Assembly: GCA_001464355.1 (NCBI GenBank)
Contig: LNEU01000029.1
Coordinates: 1-64,000, forward strand
From: Burkholderiales bacterium Ga0077544
GTDB taxonomy: Bacteria; Pseudomonadota; Gammaproteobacteria; Burkholderiales; Burkholderiaceae_D
DNA: 64,000 nucleotides
Direction of reading: 5' to 3'
Below, in pieces: positions 291 through 12,225 of the stretch. The notes under the pieces are model-generated. The model did not search any database and was not told the origin of the DNA. It worked only from the letters and a program-made list of their open reading frames with translations. A program made the translations under genes and the position numbers. Within the stretch, counting starts at the first letter, position 1. Each line of letters begins with the position of its first letter.

Positions 291-983
291 TTAGTACCAG
301 TAGCCGTAGTCGATCAGTTCGTTTTGGAATAGATCAATGTAGATGTGGTCCGGTGATGGAGATGCCAGGATATCGCTGACCTTCAGATACACAATTTCAA
401 ATCCTGCCTTGTTCATTCCATACTGAGCCGTCGAGCGGAACATGTCCGGTTCAACACCAAGCATGTTTTCATCGACGGGAATGTGTACTTCGATGAACTC
501 GTCCGCTGTGAGTGACGAGGCCAGTCCCGCTAGACCTGTAATCGCCACAACGATTCCTTCAGATAACAACCGATCTTGAACGATCATTCCTTCAGTGCCA
601 GATTCCAACTCCACCATGTAGGTGTTCAAAGGGCACTGGAAATAAATGGCACCGCTATCGTTGCTGTTCTGCGTGGGCCCTGACCAGTAGGACACAATGT
701 CTGCATACTTTTCAGGTAGATCAGGAGCGTTTTCAAAGATGCATCCTCGCAAGTTGGCAGGTAGCTCGATCTTTACCTTTTCGTTCGAGTTGAACATCAC
801 AGATGTGGGATGGCTAGGAAGCGGCTGTAGTGGCAGATAGTTGGCGTTCTTGAGACGGTAGCCTGGGCGATTCTCAAAGTCAGGATTGTCGTCGCAGAGC
901 TCGACCCGGTCGTGGTAGTCCATATCCTTGATTGTTTGTGATGTTTCATAAGCTTGCTGAGTGATGTAGATGGTCGCGGTCAT
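291..983 (-). CDS. Hypothetical protein, 230 aa, partner gene of the radical SAM protein
   Basis: I do not recognise a family. The start at 983 is supported by an AAAGGAT ribosome-binding site close upstream. The protein is acidic, with no signal peptide. One short hydrophobic stretch near residues 145-160 (VVAITGLAGLASS) may be a buried helix and is too short to be a clear membrane anchor. The C-terminus is rich in Tyr and Asp (IDYGYWY). It follows the radical SAM gene on the same strand after 74 bases with no visible terminator, so the two are probably co-transcribed. It could be a substrate, a regulator or an effector of that enzyme; nothing in the sequence decides between these. Confidence 0.7.
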   Translation of the reverse strand: MTATIYITQQAYETSQTIKDMDYHDRVELCDDNPDFENRPGYRLKNANYLPLQPLPSHPTSVMFNSNEKVKIELPANLRGCIFENAPDLPEKYADIVSYWSGPTQNSNDSGAIYFQCPLNTYMVELESGTEGMIVQDRLLSEGIVVAITGLAGLASSLTADEFIEVHIPVDENMLGVEPDMFRSTAQYGMNKAGFEIVYLKVSDILASPSPDHIYIDLFQNELIDYGYWY

Positions 984-1057: not shown

Positions 1058-2239
1058 TCAAACTGAGACGGATGGTGCAAATTCGATGACTGAATAGCCT
1101 TTCTTGATCAGTTTGAGTTTGTGTCTACTTTCGATCTGGGAACGATCGGTACTGAATAGATGCATTGCTCGAGGTCCAGGAATGGAATGAGCTGTTTTGT
1201 GGATGACGGCATTGCGGATGGTTTGTTCGCCGACGGACGGATCGAAGAAGAACCCTTGGTTGTATCCAAAGCGATCTAAGGCGTACTGGGCATTGAAAAT
1301 GAAGGTATGAGCGTCGTAGGCATTTGCCATCAAGATCAACTGGATCGATTTGCCGGCTCTAGTGGATGTGCCTATGAAGTAGCGGGGATAGCTACCTGCG
1401 GGGGACGTCTCTTTGAATGTGTATGCAAACTCCTCGGTTAGAGATGTAAGGACGCTGCTATCTGTAGCGATGATGTCGATGTCATCGTATTCCAGGTGGT
1501 TGGTAGGGCTGACTAGATGTTTGGCAAAACCTCCGAAGATATAAATGTGTGAATGATGCATAAGCCGGTGAGCCAATGCTGCATGGTCCTGAACGATGCT
1601 GTACCCGTTGCCCTCGACCTTAGATAGGTACCGACTCTCTAGGCAGAGCTTCTTAGGGACGAACACAATGCCACTGTGCCCGAAAGACATACAGGCCGGG
1701 TTTATGGAATGGACGCTGTTGAAGTTCTCCCGTAACGCTAGCCGTCCACCTAGTTTTGATCGAATTCCCATGTATTGCGGTTTTAATGCATTGAGCTCCT
1801 GTTCAGGCAAAGAAGGTAGTACCAAAGAATATTCAATGTCCATGCCTAGCCACTGATCCTTATAGCGATCAATTTCGGTAAATATCTCCTGATCTAGTGA
1901 AATAGAAACGTAGTCAGCGATACCTCTCAGTTGAGCGACATGTTGCACCTCGCGGGTGATGACGCGGACCTTGAAACCATGTGCCTTGATGATGCTGGCC
2001 ATGCGCTCCAGGTCGTGCCGATTTTCTTCAAATCGATAAAGCGGGTCCCCACCTCCGCTAATCGTGATGAACGATTTATTGCACTGCTTGATGAAGTTTG
2101 AGATGGCTTGTTCGGATTGAGCGCCGTGGGGGAGGAGGGGAGATGTTCGCCAGTTGCAATAAGAGCAGACTTTGGAGCAGCCGAATCCTTTTTGCTTCCA
2201 GTTGACGATGATGGTGAAGTTTGGTGTGTGTGAATGCAT
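1058..2239 (-). CDS. Radical SAM protein with C-terminal nucleotidyltransferase-like domain
   Basis: From ATG 2239 (AAAAGGAGCC directly upstream) the protein is 393 aa. The N-terminal half carries the radical SAM cluster motif C-x3-C-x2-C (CSKVCSYC, residues 21-28) and the SAM-contact motif SGGGDP (about 61-66), followed by an alternating beta/alpha pattern. At about residue 236 a second unit begins with GGFAKH and then DDIDI near 252. This is the G-G...D-x-D arrangement of the polymerase-beta / tRNA-nucleotidyltransferase fold. A longer form starting at GTG 2269 would add ten residues but lacks a ribosome-binding site. Radical SAM enzymes cleave S-adenosylmethionine at a [4Fe-4S] cluster to make a radical; the substrate here is unknown. 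The combination of the two domains is uncommon. The radical SAM part is secure and the NTase-like part is inferred from short motifs. Confidence 0.8.
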   Translation of the reverse strand: MHSHTPNFTIIVNWKQKGFGCSKVCSYCNWRTSPLLPHGAQSEQAISNFIKQCNKSFITISGGGDPLYRFEENRHDLERMASIIKAHGFKVRVITREVQHVAQLRGIADYVSISLDQEIFTEIDRYKDQWLGMDIEYSLVLPSLPEQELNALKPQYMGIRSKLGGRLALRENFNSVHSINPACMSFGHSGIVFVPKKLCLESRYLSKVEGNGYSIVQDHAALAHRLMHHSHIYIFGGFAKHLVSPTNHLEYDDIDIIATDSSVLTSLTEEFAYTFKETSPAGSYPRYFIGTSTRAGKSIQLILMANAYDAHTFIFNAQYALDRFGYNQGFFFDPSVGEQTIRNAVIHKTAHSIPGPRAMHLFSTDRSQIESRHKLKLIKKGYSVIEFAPSVSV

Positions 2240-2331
2240 TGGCTCCTTTTTGTGGACGAAAAAAACCACGGACCGAAGTACGTGGGCTGGATTGGATAAT
2301 TAGATTTACTAAGTAAGTGACATCGGCTGGT

Positions 2332-2481: not shown

Positions 2482-3147
2482 ATGCTGCCATTTATCGCTT
2501 TGGGTGCCGTTATTTTGGGTGCCACGGCTGTTGTTGTGAAAAAGGTTTGGAAGAAAGAGCCGGTGCCGCCGGCTATCATTAATCTCGACCGTTTTGCTAT
2601 TTGGGGGCGACCAAACTCGGGTAAGACCACGTTTATTTTTCGAATTTTGAAAAAGGATATATCTGACAGGAAGGAGCAGACCACGTCAAAACGAACATAT
2701 AAAGATATTCCTCCTTTTCCCGTCGATGGTATGCAATATCAAATACGAGAAGTTACGGACATGCCTGGCACCAAAGATCGTTTAAGTGATTGGTTAGCCA
2801 TAGTTAAGACGCACGAACATGTCTTCTACTTGCTAAATCTTTCTCGCAAGGACGATGATGAATACAAAGCGTGGGTTCGCGCAGATTTGCGCGCTACCAT
2901 GAAAGCGCTGGGCGAATCAAAAAAGCTTGATAAAAAGCTGCATGTAATTGCTTCTCACGTCGACAAGTCGAGTTTTTCCGGCGTAGCGCCGGAGGAGGTC
3001 AATAATGTCCTTCAAGAAGATTTGGGTATTCTGCGATTTATGGAAGAAACAGCGGGAGTAAAAAGTTATTTGTATGCGGTCGACCTGACAAATCCGGGCA
3101 GCTTTTCCACGCTGATAGAAAGCATAGTTCGGGACACATGTGATTGA
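2482..3147 (+). CDS. Membrane-anchored small GTPase (P-loop NTPase)
   Basis: With the start at ATG 2482 (GAAGGG upstream) the protein is 221 aa. Residues 2-20 form a hydrophobic anchor (LPFIALGAVILGATAVVV) followed by a Lys-rich positive patch, so the enzymatic part should face the cytoplasm. The Walker A / G1 motif is GRPNSGKT (42-49), G3 is DMPG (93-96) and a G4-like SHVDK lies at 158-162 in place of the usual N/TKxD. The order and spacing fit a Ras/Arf-like GTPase domain. It heads a three-gene cassette, and the next gene starts inside its stop region (8-base overlap). An upstream in-frame start at 2416 is possible but would put charged residues before the anchor. The exact subfamily is not recognised; a defence or signalling role is conjecture. 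Confidence 0.75.
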   Translation: MLPFIALGAVILGATAVVVKKVWKKEPVPPAIINLDRFAIWGRPNSGKTTFIFRILKKDISDRKEQTTSKRTYKDIPPFPVDGMQYQIREVTDMPGTKDRLSDWLAIVKTHEHVFYLLNLSRKDDDEYKAWVRADLRATMKALGESKKLDKKLHVIASHVDKSSFSGVAPEEVNNVLQEDLGILRFMEETAGVKSYLYAVDLTNPGSFSTLIESIVRDTCD

Positions 3148-3610
3148 TCTGAAGCAAAACAAATACCTGTACGCGCAAGCGTTGGATAACTCGGGTGATT
3201 CGGAGTTCTGGATGTTTGATGCATCGCAGGGGGCGTGGAGTCATCTGCCAATGGAAGATGCAAGGGAAGGCCTTGTACGCAATTCGTTAGACGTACTTGC
3301 AGCAGATGGACGACGTTACTTTCGATCAGCGCATGTGGAGTGCCACGCGTTTTTTAGCGGACTTGCAGTGTTAAAGGTAGTCCCAACAATGCTTGATATT
3401 GATGGCCGTGTTTCACCAGTTTTGATTTTGCTTGACGTATTCAGCAAACATCGGAGTGAAGGGTTGAAGAGCCTACCTCAAATACTTGAGCGCATGCGTG
3501 GAAAATTAGGTTGGGAAGTTGAGGAGCAACTTTCAGAATTTCATATCTGCTTGCGACGTTCAAGGTTTATTGCATTTATAAGTTTGCTGTTTTCATCTAA
3601 AGATAGGTAA
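3140..3610 (+). CDS. Hypothetical protein, 156 aa, second gene of the GTPase cassette
   Basis: The frame starts with GTG at 3140, overlapping the GTPase stop codon by 8 bases, a layout typical of translational coupling. I do not recognise the fold. The middle (VSPVLILLDVF) and the end (FIAFISLLF) are short hydrophobic runs. The rest mixes charged and aromatic residues (SEFWMFDAS near the N-terminus), which suggests a compact alpha/beta protein. It is followed by the third gene after only 3 bases. Its position suggests a protein that acts with the GTPase, for example as a regulator or effector, but this is inference from order alone. Confidence 0.65.
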   Translation: MIDLKQNKYLYAQALDNSGDSEFWMFDASQGAWSHLPMEDAREGLVRNSLDVLAADGRRYFRSAHVECHAFFSGLAVLKVVPTMLDIDGRVSPVLILLDVFSKHRSEGLKSLPQILERMRGKLGWEVEEQLSEFHICLRRSRFIAFISLLFSSKDR

Positions 3611-3613
3611 GTA

Positions 3614-4402
3614 ATGAAGTCTTACATTAAAAAGGTATTCATCGTTGACCGCGAGTTTATGAGTGACTTAAAGGAGCGCTCACGCAAAGAGTATGAACTT
3701 TTTACTGAGCCTGAGCTTGATACAAAGATAATTTGTTTGCCTTTATCTGAGCAGGAAGCAGAAAGCCTTACGCAGGTCATCGATTCATCGGCAATCTGTG
3801 CGGGGAGCATTTTGATTAAGCCCAACTACTCCCAAGATTTTGTGCCTGTTGATCATTTCTCAGAAGAGGTCGTTATTCGCAAGTACGGACTTTTTGTGCA
3901 ATTTTGCGTTGTACTGGGCGCCAAAAAAGTGTCCATCCTTAACGAGGAAGGAATGAAATTGGAATCAGGCGATAGCAGCGCTTTAGATTTCACAGCTGCA
4001 GGCGGCGGGTTTGGCACAAGTGTAAATGCATCGGCAGGAATGAACCGCTCTAATCTAAATCATCATATTAAAGAGTCAGCTATGAGTCTGAACACAGTAG
4101 CCGAAGGCGGCGAGCCGGACATAGATACTGCGAAGGGACTTATGGACCAATATGGATTACATAAGGATCCTCTCTTCAGCGGCCTTTTGATCATGCGCCA
4201 GAGTAAATCAAACAAACTTCAGAGGCATGAACTAACCCTAGACTCCTCTAAGGATGTAAGCCGTATATTCGACTCTTCAATGAATGCCAAGCTTGATGTC
4301 CTAATAGAAATGTATAAAGGTAAGGCGGGCTTTGAACAAAGTCGAAAGGTGATTGAAAAAAATAAGGTAGCAACAAAGCTCTCCGTGGTTGTCGAGTTTT
4401 GA
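3614..4402 (+). CDS. Hypothetical protein, 262 aa, third gene of the GTPase cassette
   Basis: The ATG at 3614 lies 3 bases after the previous stop. I do not recognise a family. The first 125 residues look like an ordinary alpha/beta domain starting with VFIVD. A flexible Gly/Ser/Ala-rich segment (AAGGGFGTSVNASAG, about 129-143) follows. The C-terminal half is helical and charged, with Lys-rich stretches near the end, and there is no signal peptide or membrane span. The cassette ends here; the next gene to the right is convergent. Codon use is more AT-rich than in the core genes further right, in keeping with transfer. Confidence 0.65.
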   Translation: MKSYIKKVFIVDREFMSDLKERSRKEYELFTEPELDTKIICLPLSEQEAESLTQVIDSSAICAGSILIKPNYSQDFVPVDHFSEEVVIRKYGLFVQFCVVLGAKKVSILNEEGMKLESGDSSALDFTAAGGGFGTSVNASAGMNRSNLNHHIKESAMSLNTVAEGGEPDIDTAKGLMDQYGLHKDPLFSGLLIMRQSKSNKLQRHELTLDSSKDVSRIFDSSMNAKLDVLIEMYKGKAGFEQSRKVIEKNKVATKLSVVVEF

Positions 4403-4597: not shown

Positions 4598-5494
4598 CTA
4601 AAGCACGTTTTTATACGACTGCTCAATCAAGCCAAACACATACTCCAATTCATCCTTCGATTTCAGATAAACGCGGCGATCCATGGTCCAGTTGTACCCA
4701 TCCGGGATTTTTTCAACACGGTTTTGCGGATCGACATAATCGATAGGCCGCAATTGAATCTTGATTTGGTTCTTGCCGATATGCAGGTCGGCAAAGTTCT
4801 TTGATACGCGATAGGCGACGTAGAGCGTATTTGGTTTTTCATTGACCGATTCATCGAGCGCCATTATGCGTTCCCGTAAATCATCAAACAGGTCACGAAT
4901 CGCGTCTGTCGCTTTGCTTCGGAGCTCCTCTACTGATGGCGTATCTTTCTCTAGGGGCAGCAGGCTGGAAGCTGGAATCGCCTGCGGCAGCGGCGGCTCT
5001 GACAGGGTCACCGGCTCTAGCGTGAAGATGTCGCCTTCATAATAGCGATAGCGCATCAGTTCAATTCGCAGCGGCACGACTTCCACTGTGTCGATATCGA
5101 ACTTGCTGAACGATTCCGCAATGCAGATCACCCACGGGTTATGCCAATCAAGCTTGATCTTGTCCGCGACCGCGTTCCCGAGCTTGTCCATCATCAGCTT
5201 TTCAAAGAATCCCGGTTTTTGCGTCTTTAGCCACTTCAGATAGGACAGCGCCTGATTGATCACGTTGTCGTTCTTGTTGCGCTTGTACTCGATGATGACA
5301 GGCGCACCGTTAGTATCTACCGCCAAAGTATCGATCCTGCCACCCAGCGTGGTGACGTACTCGCTAGCCAGGAAGTGCAGTTCAAGCACTTCCATCAAGT
5401 TGGTCTCCACTAATTGCTGGAGATTCTTTTCCTTATCGAGCGGAAGCGCATTGAGATTTTTCAGCTTTCCGGCATTGACCTTGAAGATTGGCAT
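4598..5494 (-). CDS. DUF5655 protein with PD-(D/E)XK-like N-terminus, linked to type I R-M
   Basis: The 298-residue protein has two parts. The N-terminal half contains GGRIDTLAVD followed by VIIEYKR (about residues 51-71), a D...E-x-K pattern with the spacing of PD-(D/E)XK nuclease-like folds. The C-terminal third (about 190-298) reads as a DUF5655 domain with YVAYRVSKNFADL and the closing helix EYVFGLIEQSYKN. Proteins of this type are often found beside type I restriction genes or in DNA-repair contexts. Here it follows hsdS on the same strand after 43 bases and is probably the last gene of the hsd operon. Whether it cuts DNA or only binds it cannot be told from sequence. Confidence 0.8.
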   Translation of the reverse strand: MPIFKVNAGKLKNLNALPLDKEKNLQQLVETNLMEVLELHFLASEYVTTLGGRIDTLAVDTNGAPVIIEYKRNKNDNVINQALSYLKWLKTQKPGFFEKLMMDKLGNAVADKIKLDWHNPWVICIAESFSKFDIDTVEVVPLRIELMRYRYYEGDIFTLEPVTLSEPPLPQAIPASSLLPLEKDTPSVEELRSKATDAIRDLFDDLRERIMALDESVNEKPNTLYVAYRVSKNFADLHIGKNQIKIQLRPIDYVDPQNRVEKIPDGYNWTMDRRVYLKSKDELEYVFGLIEQSYKNVL

Positions 5495-5537: not shown

Positions 5538-6833
5538 CTACAGTGTCGCCAATCGCGCTAACAACGAGCTGGCTGGCTCATCACTCGGATCTTGCGCGAC
5601 CAATTCGCCACGGAAGGCTTTCGCGAGGATCGCGGGCGTGAGTTGATCGACCCGTTTGCTCACGGTCGCGAGACTGGTTTCAAGCTTATCAGCGATGGCG
5701 AATAGCGCGTCTACGCGGCGGACGATTTCAAATTGCTCGGTGAGCGTTGGTAGTGAAAGTTTTTGTGCTAACAATGAGCGTTGATAAATTGCGGCGACAC
5801 TTGTGGTTGCGGACTTAACTTGTTCAAGTCGTTGTCTACCTAACGGGGAGCGGAACCATATTTCGACGTATTCTGAAAGAACACTTTTTTTAAAGCGAAC
5901 TCTGAGAATATTGTTATTAAAAATAGCTGGCTCTCCCTGCCACACACAAGACTTCCCGACCAATTCCATGCTATTTCGCGTATTGAACAGCCAATCCCCC
6001 TTTTTAAGCTGAAATTTTTCTCTTTCGACTTGCGAACATTGCACACCGACCAAACTATCTAATGAATACCCCCAATTTTCAGAAATATTATTCATTTTTA
6101 AGTATGGAGTGGTTTCATTTGCTAACTTATATTGCTCGGCGGCGGAGCGAACTAAGCCCACAATAGAATCTTGAATTAATTCAGAAAATTCAATCTCAAA
6201 AGTCTGAAATTCAGCACCTTTTCGCCAGTCCTCTGTCAATGATCCAGTTATAGCAGCAGCAAGAACAGACTGCCGAAAACGTTTGATAAGTGTGGGCACT
6301 TTGTCGAGCCGTGCGCGGCAGGAATTCACCGCCGCCAGCAGGGTGTCGAGTTTATCCGCGATGCGTTTTTGTTCGTTGAGTGGGGCGAGTAGAAATGGAG
6401 CTTTTGAGAATCGACCTTTATTTAGAATCGCAATTGTCGTAGCTGACGCCTCACTTTCCATCCAGCTTTTAAGTGTTTTGCAGTAATAATATCCGTAACG
6501 ATCGCTGACATATTTTGAATGAAATTCAATACTATTAATTTGCTGATTTGTTGCCAACTCCGTCCCTGCAATTGCAACTCTACCTAAGTTTCCAATGCAA
6601 GATACCAAGATTGCTCCAGATCTGAGTTTCCTTGCTCGTTGAATCCCAATATCAGATAGATATTCCACCGAGGATGTTATGGGAATATTTGAGTTCAAAT
6701 CACCAGGCTTTACAAATGGATAATTCCCGCCAAAATACAAAGGATTTTCTTTTTTGGATGGAGTGCCGCCAGTTGTGATTACCCCGACATCTTCTAACGT
6801 CGCAACCAGCCATGATTCGGGTAATTCGCTCAC
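5538..6833 (-). CDS. hsdS: Type I restriction-modification system specificity subunit HsdS
   Basis: The 431-residue protein has the HsdS layout: two variable target-recognition domains, each followed by a conserved helical linker. The first linker is near residues 150-210 (PLNEQKRIADKLDTLLAAV and GSLTEDWR). The second is near 370-425 (TEQFEIVRRVDALFAIADK and AFRGELV). HsdS reads the bipartite DNA target and holds the HsdM and HsdR subunits together. Its start overlaps the hsdM stop by 4 bases. The stretches coding for the recognition domains are markedly more AT-rich than the linkers, which is usual for exchanged HsdS domains. The frame is intact. Confidence 0.93.
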   Translation of the reverse strand: MSELPESWLVATLEDVGVITTGGTPSKKENPLYFGGNYPFVKPGDLNSNIPITSSVEYLSDIGIQRARKLRSGAILVSCIGNLGRVAIAGTELATNQQINSIEFHSKYVSDRYGYYYCKTLKSWMESEASATTIAILNKGRFSKAPFLLAPLNEQKRIADKLDTLLAAVNSCRARLDKVPTLIKRFRQSVLAAAITGSLTEDWRKGAEFQTFEIEFSELIQDSIVGLVRSAAEQYKLANETTPYLKMNNISENWGYSLDSLVGVQCSQVEREKFQLKKGDWLFNTRNSMELVGKSCVWQGEPAIFNNNILRVRFKKSVLSEYVEIWFRSPLGRQRLEQVKSATTSVAAIYQRSLLAQKLSLPTLTEQFEIVRRVDALFAIADKLETSLATVSKRVDQLTPAILAKAFRGELVAQDPSDEPASSLLARLATL

Positions 6834-8281
6834 GCTTCGACCTCTTCTACTACCAATGCGTCAATAATCCCCTGCAACTCTGCTAGCGTCGCTTCTAGCT
6901 CGCCTATCGCTTCCTGAGCCAATACTTCTGGTGCTGGCAAATCGGCAGCATCTTCAACCGAATCATCTTTCAGCCAGCTGATGTCGAGACTGTCATTTCG
7001 GTTAGCGATCTCGGCGCGGGTGAAGTGGCGGAAGCGGCCTTGTTCGCCGGTATCTACACGTTTGGCGAGACTGGAGGCTTCGCCTAATGGATCAGCACCG
7101 TAAGCGGCTTCAAACTCAGCGAAGTGGTCGCGCTTGAGCTCAGTGCGTTTACCAAATTGCGGCATGTTAGCGCGCATGTCGTAGAACCAAACCTCCTTGG
7201 TATTACCTTTGTCGGTTTTACCTCGGGTGAAAAATAGCACATTGGTTTTGACGCCTTGGGCATAGAAGATTCCAGTGGGCAGCCGCAAGATGGTGTGAAG
7301 ATTGCATTTGTCCATCAGGTCGGCGCGGATGCTTTTTCCGGTATTACTTTCAAACAGCACGTTATCCGGCAAGACGACGGCAGCGCGGCCACCTTCGCGC
7401 AAACCACGATAGATGTGCTGCAAGAAGGCGAATTGTTTGTTGGAAGTCGGGTAGGTGAAATCGTCACGGTCCGGCAAGCCGCCACCCTGTTTTGTGCCGA
7501 ACGGCGGATTGGTCAGCATCAGCGTGGCCTTCTTTAATGCCGCGCCTTGTGGCGACAGAGTATCGCCATAGTTAATGCCGGCTTCGCCTTCATTGTCGAT
7601 GCCGTGTAGCATCAGGTTCATCAGGGCGAGGCGGTGCGTGTCCTGTACATGCTCCATACCGTAGAAAGTAGATTGCGCGTATTTCCGCTGCTGCGCTTCA
7701 GTCCAAACGGTCTTGTCGTGATGCGTGTCGATGTAGTGATGTGCGGCGATCAGGAAGCCGCCAGTGCCTGCTGCCGGGTCTTGGATGATGTCGTCGGGCG
7801 ACGGCTGCATCACCGCAACCATGCTGTCGATCAGCACACGGGGCGTGAAGTATTGACCGGCGCCAGATTTCTTCTCATTGGCGTTTTTTTGCAGCAAGCC
7901 TTCGTACAGGTCACCCATGCCTTCGGCCTTGGCGCTGTACCAGTCGATCTTATTGATCTCTGTGACAAGCGTGCTGAGTGTGGCGGGTTTTTTGATGAAG
8001 GTGCTGGAGTTGGCGTAGATTTCTTGCACAATGCCTTTGCCCTCGCGCCCGAAGTCTCGCAGCAAATCTTCGTAAAAGCGCAGCCGATCCGGCGCGGATT
8101 GTGCGACCAAATCTTTCCAACGGTGATTTTCTGGCAACTTGTCTTGCTGGCCGGTTTCTTCGGCCATTTTCAGGAACAATAAGTATGTCAGCTCAGTGAC
8201 GTACTGGTGATAGGTTACGCCGTCGTCTTTCAAGACATTACAGAGATTCCACAGTTTGCCTACGATGTCTTGGGTGCTCAT
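6830..8281 (-). CDS. hsdM: Type I restriction-modification system DNA methyltransferase HsdM
   Basis: The 483-residue protein matches HsdM in length and motifs. An N-terminal helical domain (about 1-130) is followed by the SAM-binding motif DPAAGTGGF (near 168) and the catalytic motif NPPF (near 258), which marks an N6-adenine methyltransferase. With HsdS it methylates the host target and blocks HsdR cleavage. It lies between hsdR and hsdS; the gap to hsdR is 25 bases and hsdS starts within its stop. The start at 8281 gives MSTQDIVGKLWNLCN, a usual HsdM N-terminus. Confidence 0.95.
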   Translation of the reverse strand: MSTQDIVGKLWNLCNVLKDDGVTYHQYVTELTYLLFLKMAEETGQQDKLPENHRWKDLVAQSAPDRLRFYEDLLRDFGREGKGIVQEIYANSSTFIKKPATLSTLVTEINKIDWYSAKAEGMGDLYEGLLQKNANEKKSGAGQYFTPRVLIDSMVAVMQPSPDDIIQDPAAGTGGFLIAAHHYIDTHHDKTVWTEAQQRKYAQSTFYGMEHVQDTHRLALMNLMLHGIDNEGEAGINYGDTLSPQGAALKKATLMLTNPPFGTKQGGGLPDRDDFTYPTSNKQFAFLQHIYRGLREGGRAAVVLPDNVLFESNTGKSIRADLMDKCNLHTILRLPTGIFYAQGVKTNVLFFTRGKTDKGNTKEVWFYDMRANMPQFGKRTELKRDHFAEFEAAYGADPLGEASSLAKRVDTGEQGRFRHFTRAEIANRNDSLDISWLKDDSVEDAADLPAPEVLAQEAIGELEATLAELQGIIDALVVEEVEA

Positions 8282-8306
8282 TATTTTTTGTCGTCTCTAT
8301 ATTTAA

Positions 8307-11300
8307 CTATGCTACTTTGGGAGCCTGCTTTTCCCAAATGGCGCTATTGAATTCATCAAGAATTGTTTGCAGTTGTCCATCAAACTGCTTATCGAGGCGC
8401 TCGAAGCCCCCTGCCTGTTGTTTGAATAGCTGATTCGGATCGTCGATGGCCGATCTATCGACCACTAAATTGACTTTGGTCTGGCTGGCAATTGTTTGCA
8501 GCCATCTGCGCTGGGGCGTGGTCCAATCTGTGCGACTGCCGAGCATTTTTTGCAGAGCTTTATCGACCCGTTCATTATATGGCATCAATGCGTCGCCTAG
8601 CGCTGCGCGACGGATGTGGCCGATGATACTTGCCGCATATCCTTGGTTAGTGGTTTCACGCCAAGCTGTTTCTAAATTTATCTCTGAATAACCTGCTTGG
8701 TCGAGTGTGAAAGCCAGTTCCTTTAACTGTTTGCGGGTAAGTTCACGTGGCCGGGTTAGTACGGTGACTAGTGCGGGGATCTCGTTACCGCTGTTGCGAA
8801 TGTACTCGTCAAACTCTTTTAAGTAATCGGCTGGCTTTAGACCTTTGCCATAACCACTGGTAGCGGAGACGAATACATCTAGATGGTCGGAAATGTAGGT
8901 AACCGGTGATGGTCCACTATATTTTGTGTCTAGCAGTTCAGCGAGGCGTGCGCCATCTATAAACCAACCGCTTATTTGATCCACTGACAATGTTTTGAGC
9001 TCCTTGATGAATGACTCTGGCGGCTGACCGGCAATAGCTTCAAATACTTCTCGTTGTGCATCAGTCAGAGAGCGCTTTTTGCGCTGAAGTTTTGCAATAA
9101 ATTGTTCACGCGAGAGTTCTGCCAGCTCAGGCTGGTCTTTGATTAGTAATTCCTGAATCAGCTGCGAAAAGCTGATTTTTGGATCGACGACAACCGGCTG
9201 CATGGTGGTCATGCTTTGCAGAGCGTCATAGAGGCCTACCGCATCAAATATACGGAAAGTTTCTTTGCCAATTTCGTCGCACATTCGGGTGGCGCGGCCT
9301 AGCATCTGTTCGTACAGAATACGGCTGCTGACGCGGCGCAGGAATACCAGATTAGCGATCTCTGGCACGTCAATCCCAGTAGTGAGTAGATCAACTGTGA
9401 CGGCGATATTCGGAATCGATTCATTCTTGTAACGGCGAATCAGTTCGAGTGGTTTGTGAGCCGCCCCGGTTATCTTGATAACCGCATCGTCATCGACGCT
9501 GCCGTAAGTGTTCGCCAGTGCTATTTTGAACAGCTTGACGACGAGGTCGGCATGGGCGTCGGTAGCGCAAAAAATAAGAGTTTTCGCTTTGAGATTGGGG
9601 TCGATCTCTTTGGCGAGATAATCGCAAACGACGCGATTGAAATCTTCGGTGATGACTTTTTTGTTGAAATCTTCAACATCGAGCTTGATTTCATCGGGAG
9701 TGGTAAACAGTTCTACCTGATTGCTGCGCACATCATAGACCGACAGGGATTGCCCTTTTTCCCATTTAATGCCGGCGGTGGACAGCTGGGTCTTGATATT
9801 GAGCGGAGGTTCATGGTCGATCAGAAAACCGTCGATCACGGCTTCGCGATAGGTGTATTGATAAACCGGGGCGCCGAAAATTTGTGTGGTGTGCAGCGCG
9901 GGTGTGGCGGTCAGACCAATTTTGACAGCGTCGAAGTATTCCAACACGCGGCGGTACTTGGACACATAATCATCCTGGCTGCGAAATGCCATCTCAGTGT
10001 CTGACAGCTCACGGTCAAGCAGGTAGCCGCGATGACATTCATCGATGACGATGCAGTCATATTGATCGACTGTTGGCATAGCTGCGTCTTCAGAGGGAAA
10101 CAATACTCGATGGACCATGCCTTGTATGGTGGCGATTTGTACCGCGGTGGCGCTATCTGGAATTTTATCTTCCAACTCTTTCAGGCCAAAAATATCTGCG
10201 AAGGTTTGCAGATTTTCCATCCTGGTATCTTTGAAGGCATTGGCGGCCTGTTCGCCTAATGCTGAGCGATCAACCAGAAACAAGATCCGGCGAAAGCGCT
10301 GTGCTTTGAGCAAGCGGTAGATGAGCGCGATGCAGGTTTTTGTTTTGCCGGTACCAGTGGCCATGGCAACCAGACACGCACGCTGTCCTTCGGTGATGGC
10401 GGCTTCTACTTTTTGGATCGCAGTGGTTTGGTATTCACGTAATTTGAAATCGTATTCGAACGGCTCTGCTGCGAGCTTCTGTGCTGCCGCTGCGTGATCT
10501 TGCTTGAGTAGTTCCGACAAGCCTTCCGGCGAATACCACCCATCTAGTGCGCGCGATAAGTTTTCCGCTTTACGCACGTCACAAAACCATACGCCGCTTT
10601 TTGTTTCGACTTGCTTAAGGTAGGGACGGCCATTACTGGAAAATACAAAGGGCAACTGGAACTCCGACCATGGAGCGTGGTCAGCTTGCGTCATTCCATC
10701 AACGATTTGAAATTCTCGACTGTATCGTTTGGACTGCTGCAGGTTGCCTGAGACATCAATATTCTTTTTCTTGGCTTCGACGGCTGCAACGGGAGTGAGA
10801 CCAATAAATAGTAAGTAATCGGCGCGACCAGTTTTGGTTGGCCACTCTGCAATTGCCTTGTTTTTCCCTTTTTCTGGACGTGCGCCTTTGCCGAAAGTGA
10901 GGTTGACAGTATCTACGTCCCAACCCGCATCGCGTAATTGTTGATCAATCAAGACACGCGTTGCGGCTTCATCCAGCTGAATATGTTCGGCTGCTTTGTT
11001 AGAAGCTTTGACAATCTGCGCCAACTCTGTTGCAGGTTTGCTGGATGTTTGCGTTTGGAGTTCTATCAAACGTGCATGTGTGGCGGCTTTCTCATGCTCT
11101 GCTAGCGAAACTAGTTCTTGCCAAATCTGGTTCTCTTCGCTGCTTTTTGCGATTGTCTCTTTGGCTTCGTTCAGTTGTATTTGCGTTGCTACATGAGTGG
11201 TTTGATATGCGGTGAGCTCTGCTTGAAGTCGTGCCAGTTCCTGTCGCATCTCAACCGATTCATCCTTTGGGGCTTGCGGAGGAGTAAAGGGGCCTGACTT

Positions 11301-11681
11301 GAAGTCGGCATCTTTGTAGGTGCGATGAAACCAGATTCCTAATTGCCACGACATTTTTAGCGCAGAGAGCGCAGCTGCATGGTCACCACTGATGGCATGG
11401 TTTGCTTGGTTGCCAATCTTACGAATTTCGTGAAAGAGTTGATCTACTTGTTTAGGCAGCAGGCCTTCATCACGAAGACGATAGAGCAGGTCAAACTGAC
11501 TTTCCTCAGGAGCGACAAATTTGCCTGAATAGGCAGCAACCGCTTGCGCAAGCAATTCGCCAAACTGCCGAACCTTCAAGAGGCAAGTATTGGGGTCATC
11601 TGGAAAATATTTTTCCGATAGCAAACCAAGGCGTGCGAGTTGGGGTTCGTAGCTTTGAAGGTGTTTAAAATTGGTCGCCAT
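8307..11681 (-). CDS. hsdR: Type I restriction enzyme motor and nuclease subunit HsdR
   Basis: I place the start at ATG 11681 (MATNFKHLQ, 1124 aa), because the 30 residues before it in the open frame look non-native (CCCH). Starts at 11699 or 11771 are possible. A helical DUF4145-like region (about 1-110) and a coiled-coil stretch (about 115-230) come first. The HsdR nuclease motif follows with GRADYLL and EAKKKN. Then comes the superfamily 2 motor with ATGTGKT, DECH and TATPA, and an EcoEI-type C-terminal domain. HsdR uses ATP to pull DNA through the complex and cuts at a distance from unmethylated sites. It is the first gene of hsdR-hsdM-hsdS-DUF5655. All key residues seen are intact. Confidence 0.92.
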   Translation of the reverse strand: MATNFKHLQSYEPQLARLGLLSEKYFPDDPNTCLLKVRQFGELLAQAVAAYSGKFVAPEESQFDLLYRLRDEGLLPKQVDQLFHEIRKIGNQANHAISGDHAAALSALKMSWQLGIWFHRTYKDADFKSGPFTPPQAPKDESVEMRQELARLQAELTAYQTTHVATQIQLNEAKETIAKSSEENQIWQELVSLAEHEKAATHARLIELQTQTSSKPATELAQIVKASNKAAEHIQLDEAATRVLIDQQLRDAGWDVDTVNLTFGKGARPEKGKNKAIAEWPTKTGRADYLLFIGLTPVAAVEAKKKNIDVSGNLQQSKRYSREFQIVDGMTQADHAPWSEFQLPFVFSSNGRPYLKQVETKSGVWFCDVRKAENLSRALDGWYSPEGLSELLKQDHAAAAQKLAAEPFEYDFKLREYQTTAIQKVEAAITEGQRACLVAMATGTGKTKTCIALIYRLLKAQRFRRILFLVDRSALGEQAANAFKDTRMENLQTFADIFGLKELEDKIPDSATAVQIATIQGMVHRVLFPSEDAAMPTVDQYDCIVIDECHRGYLLDRELSDTEMAFRSQDDYVSKYRRVLEYFDAVKIGLTATPALHTTQIFGAPVYQYTYREAVIDGFLIDHEPPLNIKTQLSTAGIKWEKGQSLSVYDVRSNQVELFTTPDEIKLDVEDFNKKVITEDFNRVVCDYLAKEIDPNLKAKTLIFCATDAHADLVVKLFKIALANTYGSVDDDAVIKITGAAHKPLELIRRYKNESIPNIAVTVDLLTTGIDVPEIANLVFLRRVSSRILYEQMLGRATRMCDEIGKETFRIFDAVGLYDALQSMTTMQPVVVDPKISFSQLIQELLIKDQPELAELSREQFIAKLQRKKRSLTDAQREVFEAIAGQPPESFIKELKTLSVDQISGWFIDGARLAELLDTKYSGPSPVTYISDHLDVFVSATSGYGKGLKPADYLKEFDEYIRNSGNEIPALVTVLTRPRELTRKQLKELAFTLDQAGYSEINLETAWRETTNQGYAASIIGHIRRAALGDALMPYNERVDKALQKMLGSRTDWTTPQRRWLQTIASQTKVNLVVDRSAIDDPNQLFKQQAGGFERLDKQFDGQLQTILDEFNSAIWEKQAPKVA

Positions 11682-11898
11682 ATTGTCTTGTAGTTTCATT
11701 CTCAACTGGACTATAAGCGAAATATTTGCATGACAACAACATCTTATTGCTGGGCTGTGAGTTCCCATCAAATAAGCCCGTGCTTACGCATGAGCGATGA
11801 ATGGAAAGATTCGCTGGCGGGAAGTCGTGCATCATGGCGTGGATATGCAAAATATGAAATGAACATCTATTCAAAGCCTCGCTAAAAGCCATTCCACA

Positions 11899-12149: not shown

Positions 12150-12225
12150 TGGCTCCCCGACCTGGACTCGAACCAGGGACCTGCGGATTAACAGTCCGTC
12201 GCTCTACCAACTGAGCTATCAGGGA
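12150..12225 (-). tRNA. tRNA-Asn (anticodon GTT)
   Basis: The 76-base minus-strand sequence folds as a tRNA. The acceptor stem is TCCCTGA / TCGGGGA, the D-arm carries AGCTCAGTTGGTAGAGC and the T-arm carries GGTTCGAGTCC. The anticodon loop is CTGTTAA with anticodon GTT for asparagine. CCA is encoded. The accessory region lies on its 3' side, the usual target side for tRNA-directed integrases. Confidence 0.97.

What the first reader, a model, noticed from the sequence alone, without database searches (positions are those of the whole stretch)
2482..4402. Compact cassette: membrane-anchored GTPase plus two unrecognised proteins
Three tightly packed genes (8-base overlap, then 3-base gap) encode an N-terminally anchored small GTPase with intact G1 and G3 and an unusual G4 (SHVDK), a 156-aa protein and a 262-aa protein with a Gly-rich linker. 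The coupling, the AT-rich composition and the position between an odd radical SAM unit and a type I R-M operon are what one expects of an undescribed defence or conflict module. The function is not visible in the sequence.
Basis: partly seen in the sequence, partly recalled or inferred. Interest (0 to 1): 0.75.

Follow-up and report, generated by a model that had tools for sequence, protein, structure and literature searches.

The report
Rare mobile three-gene GTPase module
Three tightly packed bacterial genes, one a membrane-anchored molecular switch and two of unknown families, travel together as a small mobile unit and are probably a rare, undescribed conflict or defence device, although no function has been shown.

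Summary
Window 2482-4402 holds three packed genes: A, a GTPase with a hydrophobic N-terminus (221 aa; Pfam MMR_HSR1 above cut-off); B (156 aa) and C (262 aa), with no match above a cut-off in Pfam, NCBIfam, PADLOC or PHROGs. The intact A-B-C order also occurs in Janthinobacterium sp. GW458P and Duganella rivi FT55W. A, B and C were found in the same 3 of 294 family genomes, plus one weak B hit that I reject. In D. rivi the module is a 2.08-kb insert holding only these genes, between arsC and ispB, where relatives are empty or carry other genes. So it is a real, horizontally moving, co-inherited unit. The unusual G4, SHVD, is invariant in the three copies. Defence is plausible but unproven: a defence candidate and a type I R-M operon adjoin the window copy, but 10 neighbour proteins of the other two copies gave no PADLOC match. 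Best reading: a membrane-tethered GTPase switch (A), a fast-evolving adaptor or sensor (B) and an effector (C). C as a MACPF-like pore-former was tested and not supported.

The parts
2482..3147 (+). gene A: small TRAFAC-type GTPase, 221 aa, hydrophobic N-terminal anchor
   Evidence: Pfam MMR_HSR1 30.7 bits, cut-off 21.9; relatives 39.8 and 34.5 bits; alignment
2482..2538 (+). predicted N-terminal membrane anchor of A (MLPFI invariant in 3 of 3, followed by KK)
   Evidence: topology inferred
2605..2628 (+). G1/P-loop GRPNSGKT
2758..2769 (+). G3 DMPG (Thr follows in 3 of 3)
2953..2964 (+). unusual G4 SHVD, invariant in 3 of 3
3140..3610 (+). gene B: 156 aa, no known family, alpha/beta fold predicted; fastest-diverging of the three; hydrophobic C-terminal stretch in 3 of 3 by eye
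3614..4402 (+). gene C: 262 aa, no known family; candidate effector
3947..4078 (+). small-residue-rich, low-confidence middle segment of C (residues 112-155)
4598..5494 (-). neighbour: PADLOC phage-defence candidate PDC-S18 (DUF5655; NucS_C below cut-off)
5538..11771 (-). neighbour: type I restriction-modification operon (hsdS, hsdM, hsdR)
   Evidence: hsdS; hsdM and hsdR

Best explanation
The three genes form one horizontally moving functional unit, a GTPase-switched conflict module. Inferred mechanism: A sits on the inner membrane with its G domain in the cytosol and acts as a GDP/GTP switch. B binds A and controls it (exchange, hydrolysis or sensing of an intruder's signal). On triggering, A-B releases or recruits C, which acts at or near the membrane to stop the infected or competing cell. 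Shown here: the unit, its coupling, its conservation, its rarity in the genomes sampled, and in D. rivi its insertion as a unit. Inferred: membrane topology, complex formation, the roles of B and C, and defence as the purpose.
For: A, B and C were found in the same 3 of 294 family genomes in the same order. The frames are conserved as coding (weak for B). In D. rivi the cassette is a 2.08-kb insert with only A-B-C, absent from the relatives compared. It is AT-rich and patchy: C in 1 of 13, 1 of 40 and 1 of 74 genomes of the three genera. A is a GTPase above the Pfam cut-off in 3 of 3. It has Thr after DMPG, where Ras has Gln (recalled), so hydrolysis may need a partner (inference). B diverges fastest (29-40% against 45-57% identity), as sensors in conflict systems often do (general knowledge). 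The window copy adjoins PDC-S18 and type I R-M. In 2 relatives of D. rivi the same site holds a CBS-domain gene plus an SF2 helicase with weak DrmD/BrxH similarity.
Against: No PADLOC match among the 10 proteins tested beside the other two copies. None of A, B, C matches a PADLOC model at E<=1. Other cargo at the Duganella site looks metabolic or regulatory by eye. The C model is poor (pLDDT 46.5) and C has no recognised effector domain. No relative was found in plasmids (A, C), phages (C) or viral contigs (A, B, C); A and B were not searched against phages. Only three copies are known, so statements on rates and co-occurrence rest on very few sequences, and the A and B profiles were built from those same three.
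Confidence: 0.5

Rival explanations
1. A membrane-localisation or polarity module: A with a Roadblock/longin-like regulator B places C at a membrane site, as MglA/MglB do in Myxococcus, with no conflict role.
For: B is modelled with fair confidence (pLDDT 76) as an alpha/beta meander; its weak Foldseek list includes a Roadblock-longin protein (8yqg, rank 18, prob 0.35), CpaF (prob 0.85) and TagF (prob 0.30). MglB, a Roadblock-domain protein, is the GAP of MglA (abstract of PMC9481161). A of Duganella has weak Arf and SRPRB similarity (E 6e-4 and 2e-4, below cut-off).
Against: No Foldseek hit at E<=0.001 in either library. The best PDB hits by E-value are the 9-1-1 clamp (E=6e-3), not a GTPase regulator. 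In the 50 rows shown per search the TM-score by query length is at most 0.36, by target length at most 0.42. Rarity and insertion as a unit would be unusual for a polarity module (judgement).
Confidence: 0.2
2. A toxin with its keepers: C is toxic and A and B restrain it (a three-part toxin-antitoxin or addiction unit that stabilises the insert).
For: Compact, mobile and co-inherited; small genes with overlaps.
Against: No toxin or antitoxin family matches above a cut-off. A GTPase as antitoxin would be unusual.
Confidence: 0.15
3. C is a minimal MACPF/CDC-like pore-former switched by the GTPase.
For: By eye, Y-G-x(9)-G spacing and a later GG lie as in two bacterial MACPF proteins; the hhalign alignment lands on that motif. 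Duganella C has a weak PlyB_C match (E=0.22, below cut-off).
Against: The hhalign score of 16.6 is inside the shuffle range (at least ten of 100 column shuffles scored 16.8-22.2) and hardly above unrelated A and B alignments (15.8, 14.9; reversed C 11.6); the MACPF side had only two sequences. Pfam MACPF gives no match at E<=10 in the three genomes. No MACPF among the 7 PDB profile hits at E<=10 or in the fold search of a poor model.
Confidence: 0.08
4. A metabolic or stress accessory unit that merely rides on mobile DNA.
For: Core-like surroundings in two of three copies and mixed cargo at the Duganella site.
Against: No metabolic domain above a cut-off in any of the three proteins.
Confidence: 0.07

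Closest known systems
DO-GTPase/GAP1 GTPase-centric conflict systems (Kaur et al. 2020, PMC7159879)
   Same: A switch GTPase, about 13% of them with N-terminal TM segments, in mobile neighbourhoods with a co-evolving partner gene, typically downstream, and effectors (passages and section 27 read).
   Different: A falls below the DO-GTPase cut-offs and has no invariant Glu in the Walker B region; B and C hit no Pfam model above cut-off, so none of GAP1, GASH or FNIII if held there.
AP-GTPase/Roc proteins in prokaryotic conflict systems (PMC8195603, passages read)
   Same: Small Ras-like GTPase switch. The G4 Ser-His-x-Asp recalls the Thr-His-x-Asp of Roc domains (recalled; not found in the passages searched).
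   Different: No COR domain or LRR; the Roc HMM is below cut-off.
MglA/MglB polarity GTPase with Roadblock regulator (abstract of PMC9481161)
   Same: Small bacterial GTPase with a small dedicated partner (B's role is inferred; that mglA and mglB are neighbours is recalled).
   Different: A has a predicted membrane anchor; B's fold match is not significant; a third gene, C, is present in all three copies.

Membership tests
TRAFAC-type small GTPase (A) | MMR_HSR1 HMM above curated cut-off | tested here: met
   30.7, 39.8 and 34.5 bits against 21.9
TRAFAC-type small GTPase (A) | G1 GxxxxGKT and G3 DxxG intact | tested here: met
   GRPNSGKT and DMPG in the window; GxPNxGKT and DMPG in 3 of 3
TRAFAC-type small GTPase (A) | classical G4 NKxD | tested here: not met
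   SHVD in 3 of 3
DO-GTPase/GAP1 system | DO-GTPase HMM above cut-off | tested here: not met
   best 23.8 bits (Duganella A), cut-off 27; best stretch of 20 residues at the P-loop
DO-GTPase/GAP1 system | conserved Glu in Walker B | tested here: not met
   no Glu is invariant in residues 84-105 of A; feature taken from PMC7159879 section 27, which does not give its exact position
DO-GTPase/GAP1 system | GAP1 protein encoded beside the GTPase | tested here: not met
   B and C match no Pfam model above cut-off in any of three copies; that Pfam holds GAP1 models is recalled
Roc/AP-GTPase | Roc HMM above cut-off, with COR domain | tested here: not met
   15.0-16.9 bits, cut-off 27; no COR match and A ends after the G domain
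Roadblock/longin regulator (B) | Roadblock/longin fold | tested here: inconclusive
   model pLDDT 76; no Foldseek hit at E<=0.001; 8yqg at rank 18, TM 0.34
MACPF/CDC pore-former (C) | MACPF HMM or profile match | tested here: not met
Known anti-phage system | PADLOC model match for A, B or C | tested here: not met
   0 of 3 window proteins at E<=1; the relatives' A, B, C were not scanned
Anti-phage defence in general | protection against phage | not testable with these tools
   needs phage challenge

The most novel reading that the evidence does not exclude
A bacterial immune module of a new kind: a membrane-tethered Ras-superfamily GTPase that, with a dedicated small regulator, directly licenses a membrane-attacking effector (C, possibly a very small pore-former), all within 2 kb and moving as one insert.
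Probability: 0.12. Interest if true: 0.85.

Novelty: new variant of a known kind. Interest (0 to 1): 0.55.

Why it matters
GTPase switches guard immunity and cell death in eukaryotes, and large GTPase-centred conflict systems have been predicted in bacteria. A two-kilobase version with one G domain, one regulator and one effector would be a minimal, testable form of that logic and would give two new protein families a context.

Tried and rejected
MACPF hypothesis for C: tested by Pfam HMM, profile-profile comparison with 100 column shuffles, PDB profile search and fold search; not supported. Fold of C: the model is too poor to use. Weak fourth B hit in G140 (E=8e-4, one stop inside): rejected; by coordinates it lies antisense inside an ORF that reads like a glycosyltransferase. 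My notebook entry called that ORF an EPS polymerase; that was wrong. Relatives of C in phages, plasmids and viral contigs, of A in plasmids and viral contigs, of B in viral contigs, and of the cassette DNA in E. coli genomes: none; B and A of Duganella gave only plasmid hits with E>=1. Terminal repeats around the cassette: none convincing in the three loci. att-like repeat of the tRNA-Asn 3' end: only short chance-level matches in the window. Promoter and terminator scans: no more than the shuffles give. Paper searches for a small-GTPase anti-phage operon or a three-gene GTPase phage-defence system returned 0 papers holding all terms; the term sets were narrow and the held library is partial, so this says little. 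Six further paper searches were seen as listings and gave no description of this cassette.

A half-remembered consensus of an uncharacterised protein family resembling C was tested as a query: no plasmid or viral relative, a weak Trypco2 match below cut-off. Its hhalign score against C (36.6; best of 100 shuffles 21.6) is not evidence, since I wrote it after seeing C.

Full report
What is there. Window 2482-4402 (+) holds three genes. A (2482-3147, 221 aa) is a small GTPase; B (3140-3610, 156 aa) starts eight bases before the end of A; C (3614-4402, 262 aa) follows three bases later. A passes the Pfam cut-off for MMR_HSR1. Its G1 and G3 are intact, and its G4 reads SHVD. B and C of the window match nothing above a cut-off in Pfam or NCBIfam and nothing at E<=1 in PADLOC or PHROGs. 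The only weak Pfam matches were to C: YolD (E=0.067, window copy) and PlyB_C (E=0.22, Duganella copy), both below cut-off. For the relatives, all six proteins were scanned in Pfam and three of them (both C, one B) in PHROGs; none was scanned in NCBIfam or PADLOC.

Relatives. C of the window as a query found 3 of 294 genomes of the same family, the window's own included. A B profile at E<=0.01 found the same three plus one hit that I reject (4 of 294). An A profile at a strict E<=1e-15 found the same three (3 of 294); weaker A relatives would not have been listed. The A and B profiles were built from these three copies, so the informative part is that no fourth genome appeared. Both carry A, B and C in the same order with overlaps or short gaps. 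In one search I set the start of C in D. rivi at a codon that is no start; the nearest start is a TTG one codon earlier, read from the RBS line of that call and the longer ORF. C was found in 1 of 399 genomes of the order, 1 of 398 of the phylum, 1 of 74 of the genus of D. rivi's genome, 1 of 40 of the genus of the Janthinobacterium genome and 1 of 13 of the window's genus; each time the only match was a genome already known. The pattern scan of genome contigs gave no locus from the single sequence (49 stretches examined) and 2 from the alignment (70 stretches).

Conservation. Identity to the window is 49 and 48% for A, 45 and 46% for C, 29 and 36% for B. In all nine pairs third codon positions differ most; the excess is large for A and C and small for B, so purifying selection is well supported for A and C and weakly for B. 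The G4 SHVD, the DMPGT motif and the first five residues MLPFI of A are invariant in the three copies. B ends in a hydrophobic stretch in all three (by eye).

Mobility. In D. rivi the cassette lies between an arsC-like gene (named by eye) and ispB (Pfam polyprenyl synthetase). Of 31 genomes of that genus searched with ispB DNA, all matched; besides the known one, 19 came back as loci and were compared, the other 11 were not. In 10 of 19, arsC lies within 220 bases of ispB; L023 and L033 show the junction just after what reads as a shared terminator, matching L005 6732 and 8817. In 5 of 19 the gap is 0.76-1.17 kb; in 3 of 19 it is larger (1.9-3.4 kb, refetched as L037-L039); in 1 the contig ends. 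No locus matched the cassette by blastn at E<=1e-5. The insert is thus about 2.08 kb and contains A, B and C only. I found no convincing terminal repeats, so how it moves is unknown. I could not do the same test for the other two copies.

Surroundings. In the window, the cassette lies in an AT-rich stretch between a radical-SAM-like gene (Pfam E=0.003, below cut-off) and a PADLOC candidate, PDC-S18, followed by a type I R-M operon and tRNA-Asn. The window starts at the contig start, so the left part of the region is cut off. Beside the other two copies, 10 neighbour proteins, not all of those within 8 kb, gave no PADLOC match at E<=0.001. Six of the ten were also scanned in Pfam: five matched DnaJ, SnoaL-like, NAPRTase, TonB receptor and polyprenyl synthetase families and one matched nothing. 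Two of the genomes related to D. rivi carry, at the same arsC-ispB site, a CBS-domain protein and an SF2 helicase whose best PADLOC matches are weak DrmD and BrxH hits. Others carry cargo that by eye looks like an oxygenase, a regulator or a repeat protein (not tested by HMM). The site is therefore not purely a defence site.

Structure. B was modelled with fair confidence (mean pLDDT 76.3, pTM 0.75) as three strands, a helix, four strands and C-terminal helices. Foldseek gave no hit at E<=0.001 in PDB or in viral models; the best PDB hits are the 9-1-1 clamp (E=6e-3, TM below 0.2), and weaker ones include CpaF, TagF and a Roadblock-longin protein. C was modelled poorly (pLDDT 46.5, pTM 0.39) and its fold search is uninformative. 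A was not modelled: the two structure jobs went to B and C.

How it probably works. I take A as a membrane-tethered switch. Its Thr after DMPG, where Ras has Gln (recalled), suggests that hydrolysis depends on a partner or on dimerisation, and B is the obvious candidate (inference). B diverges fastest, which fits a sensing or adaptor role. C, with no recognised domain and present in all three copies, is the candidate effector. Rarity, insertion as a unit and constant partnership fit biological conflict better than housekeeping, but only one of three copies is known to sit beside defence genes. I give 0.5 to a conflict role and about 0.93 to the weaker claim that the three genes are one horizontally moving functional unit.

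Comparison. GTPase-centred conflict systems are known in prediction (PMC7159879, passages and section 27 read; PMC8195603, passages read). A, B and C fail the membership tests for those systems that I could run. The G4 resembles the Roc form as I recall it; the Roco review passages that I read say only that Roc G4-G5 vary. I therefore file it as a new variant of a known kind, a GTPase-switched conflict module, with the kind itself inferred.

Noticed in passing
window 1058-2269 (-): Radical-SAM-like protein (Pfam E=0.003, below cut-off; PHROG 17662 of unknown function, E=1e-5) with a weak nucleotidyltransferase-type match in its C-terminal half (E=0.029, below cut-off); possibly a separate island gene.
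   Followed up: partly
window 291-983 (-): 230-aa protein with no match at E<=1 in Pfam, NCBIfam, PADLOC or PHROGs.
   Followed up: partly
window 4598-5494 (-): PADLOC phage-defence candidate PDC-S18 (E=3e-87) with DUF5655 and a NucS_C match below cut-off, directly downstream of the type I R-M operon.
   Followed up: partly
L038 2773-5008, L039 3697-5972: Two-gene unit, CBS-domain protein (RNxxxH-like motif by eye) and SF2 helicase with weak DrmD/BrxH similarity, at the arsC-ispB site of two genomes of the D. rivi genus; possibly an undescribed defence pair.
   Followed up: partly
L018-L039, between arsC and ispB: Variable site in the genus of D. rivi: arsC and ispB within 220 bases in 10 of 19 loci, different cargo in 8, contig end in 1.
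   Followed up: partly
window 12150-12225 (-): tRNA-Asn whose 3' end faces the R-M/cassette region, as at an island boundary; only short chance-level matches to it elsewhere in the window.
   Followed up: partly
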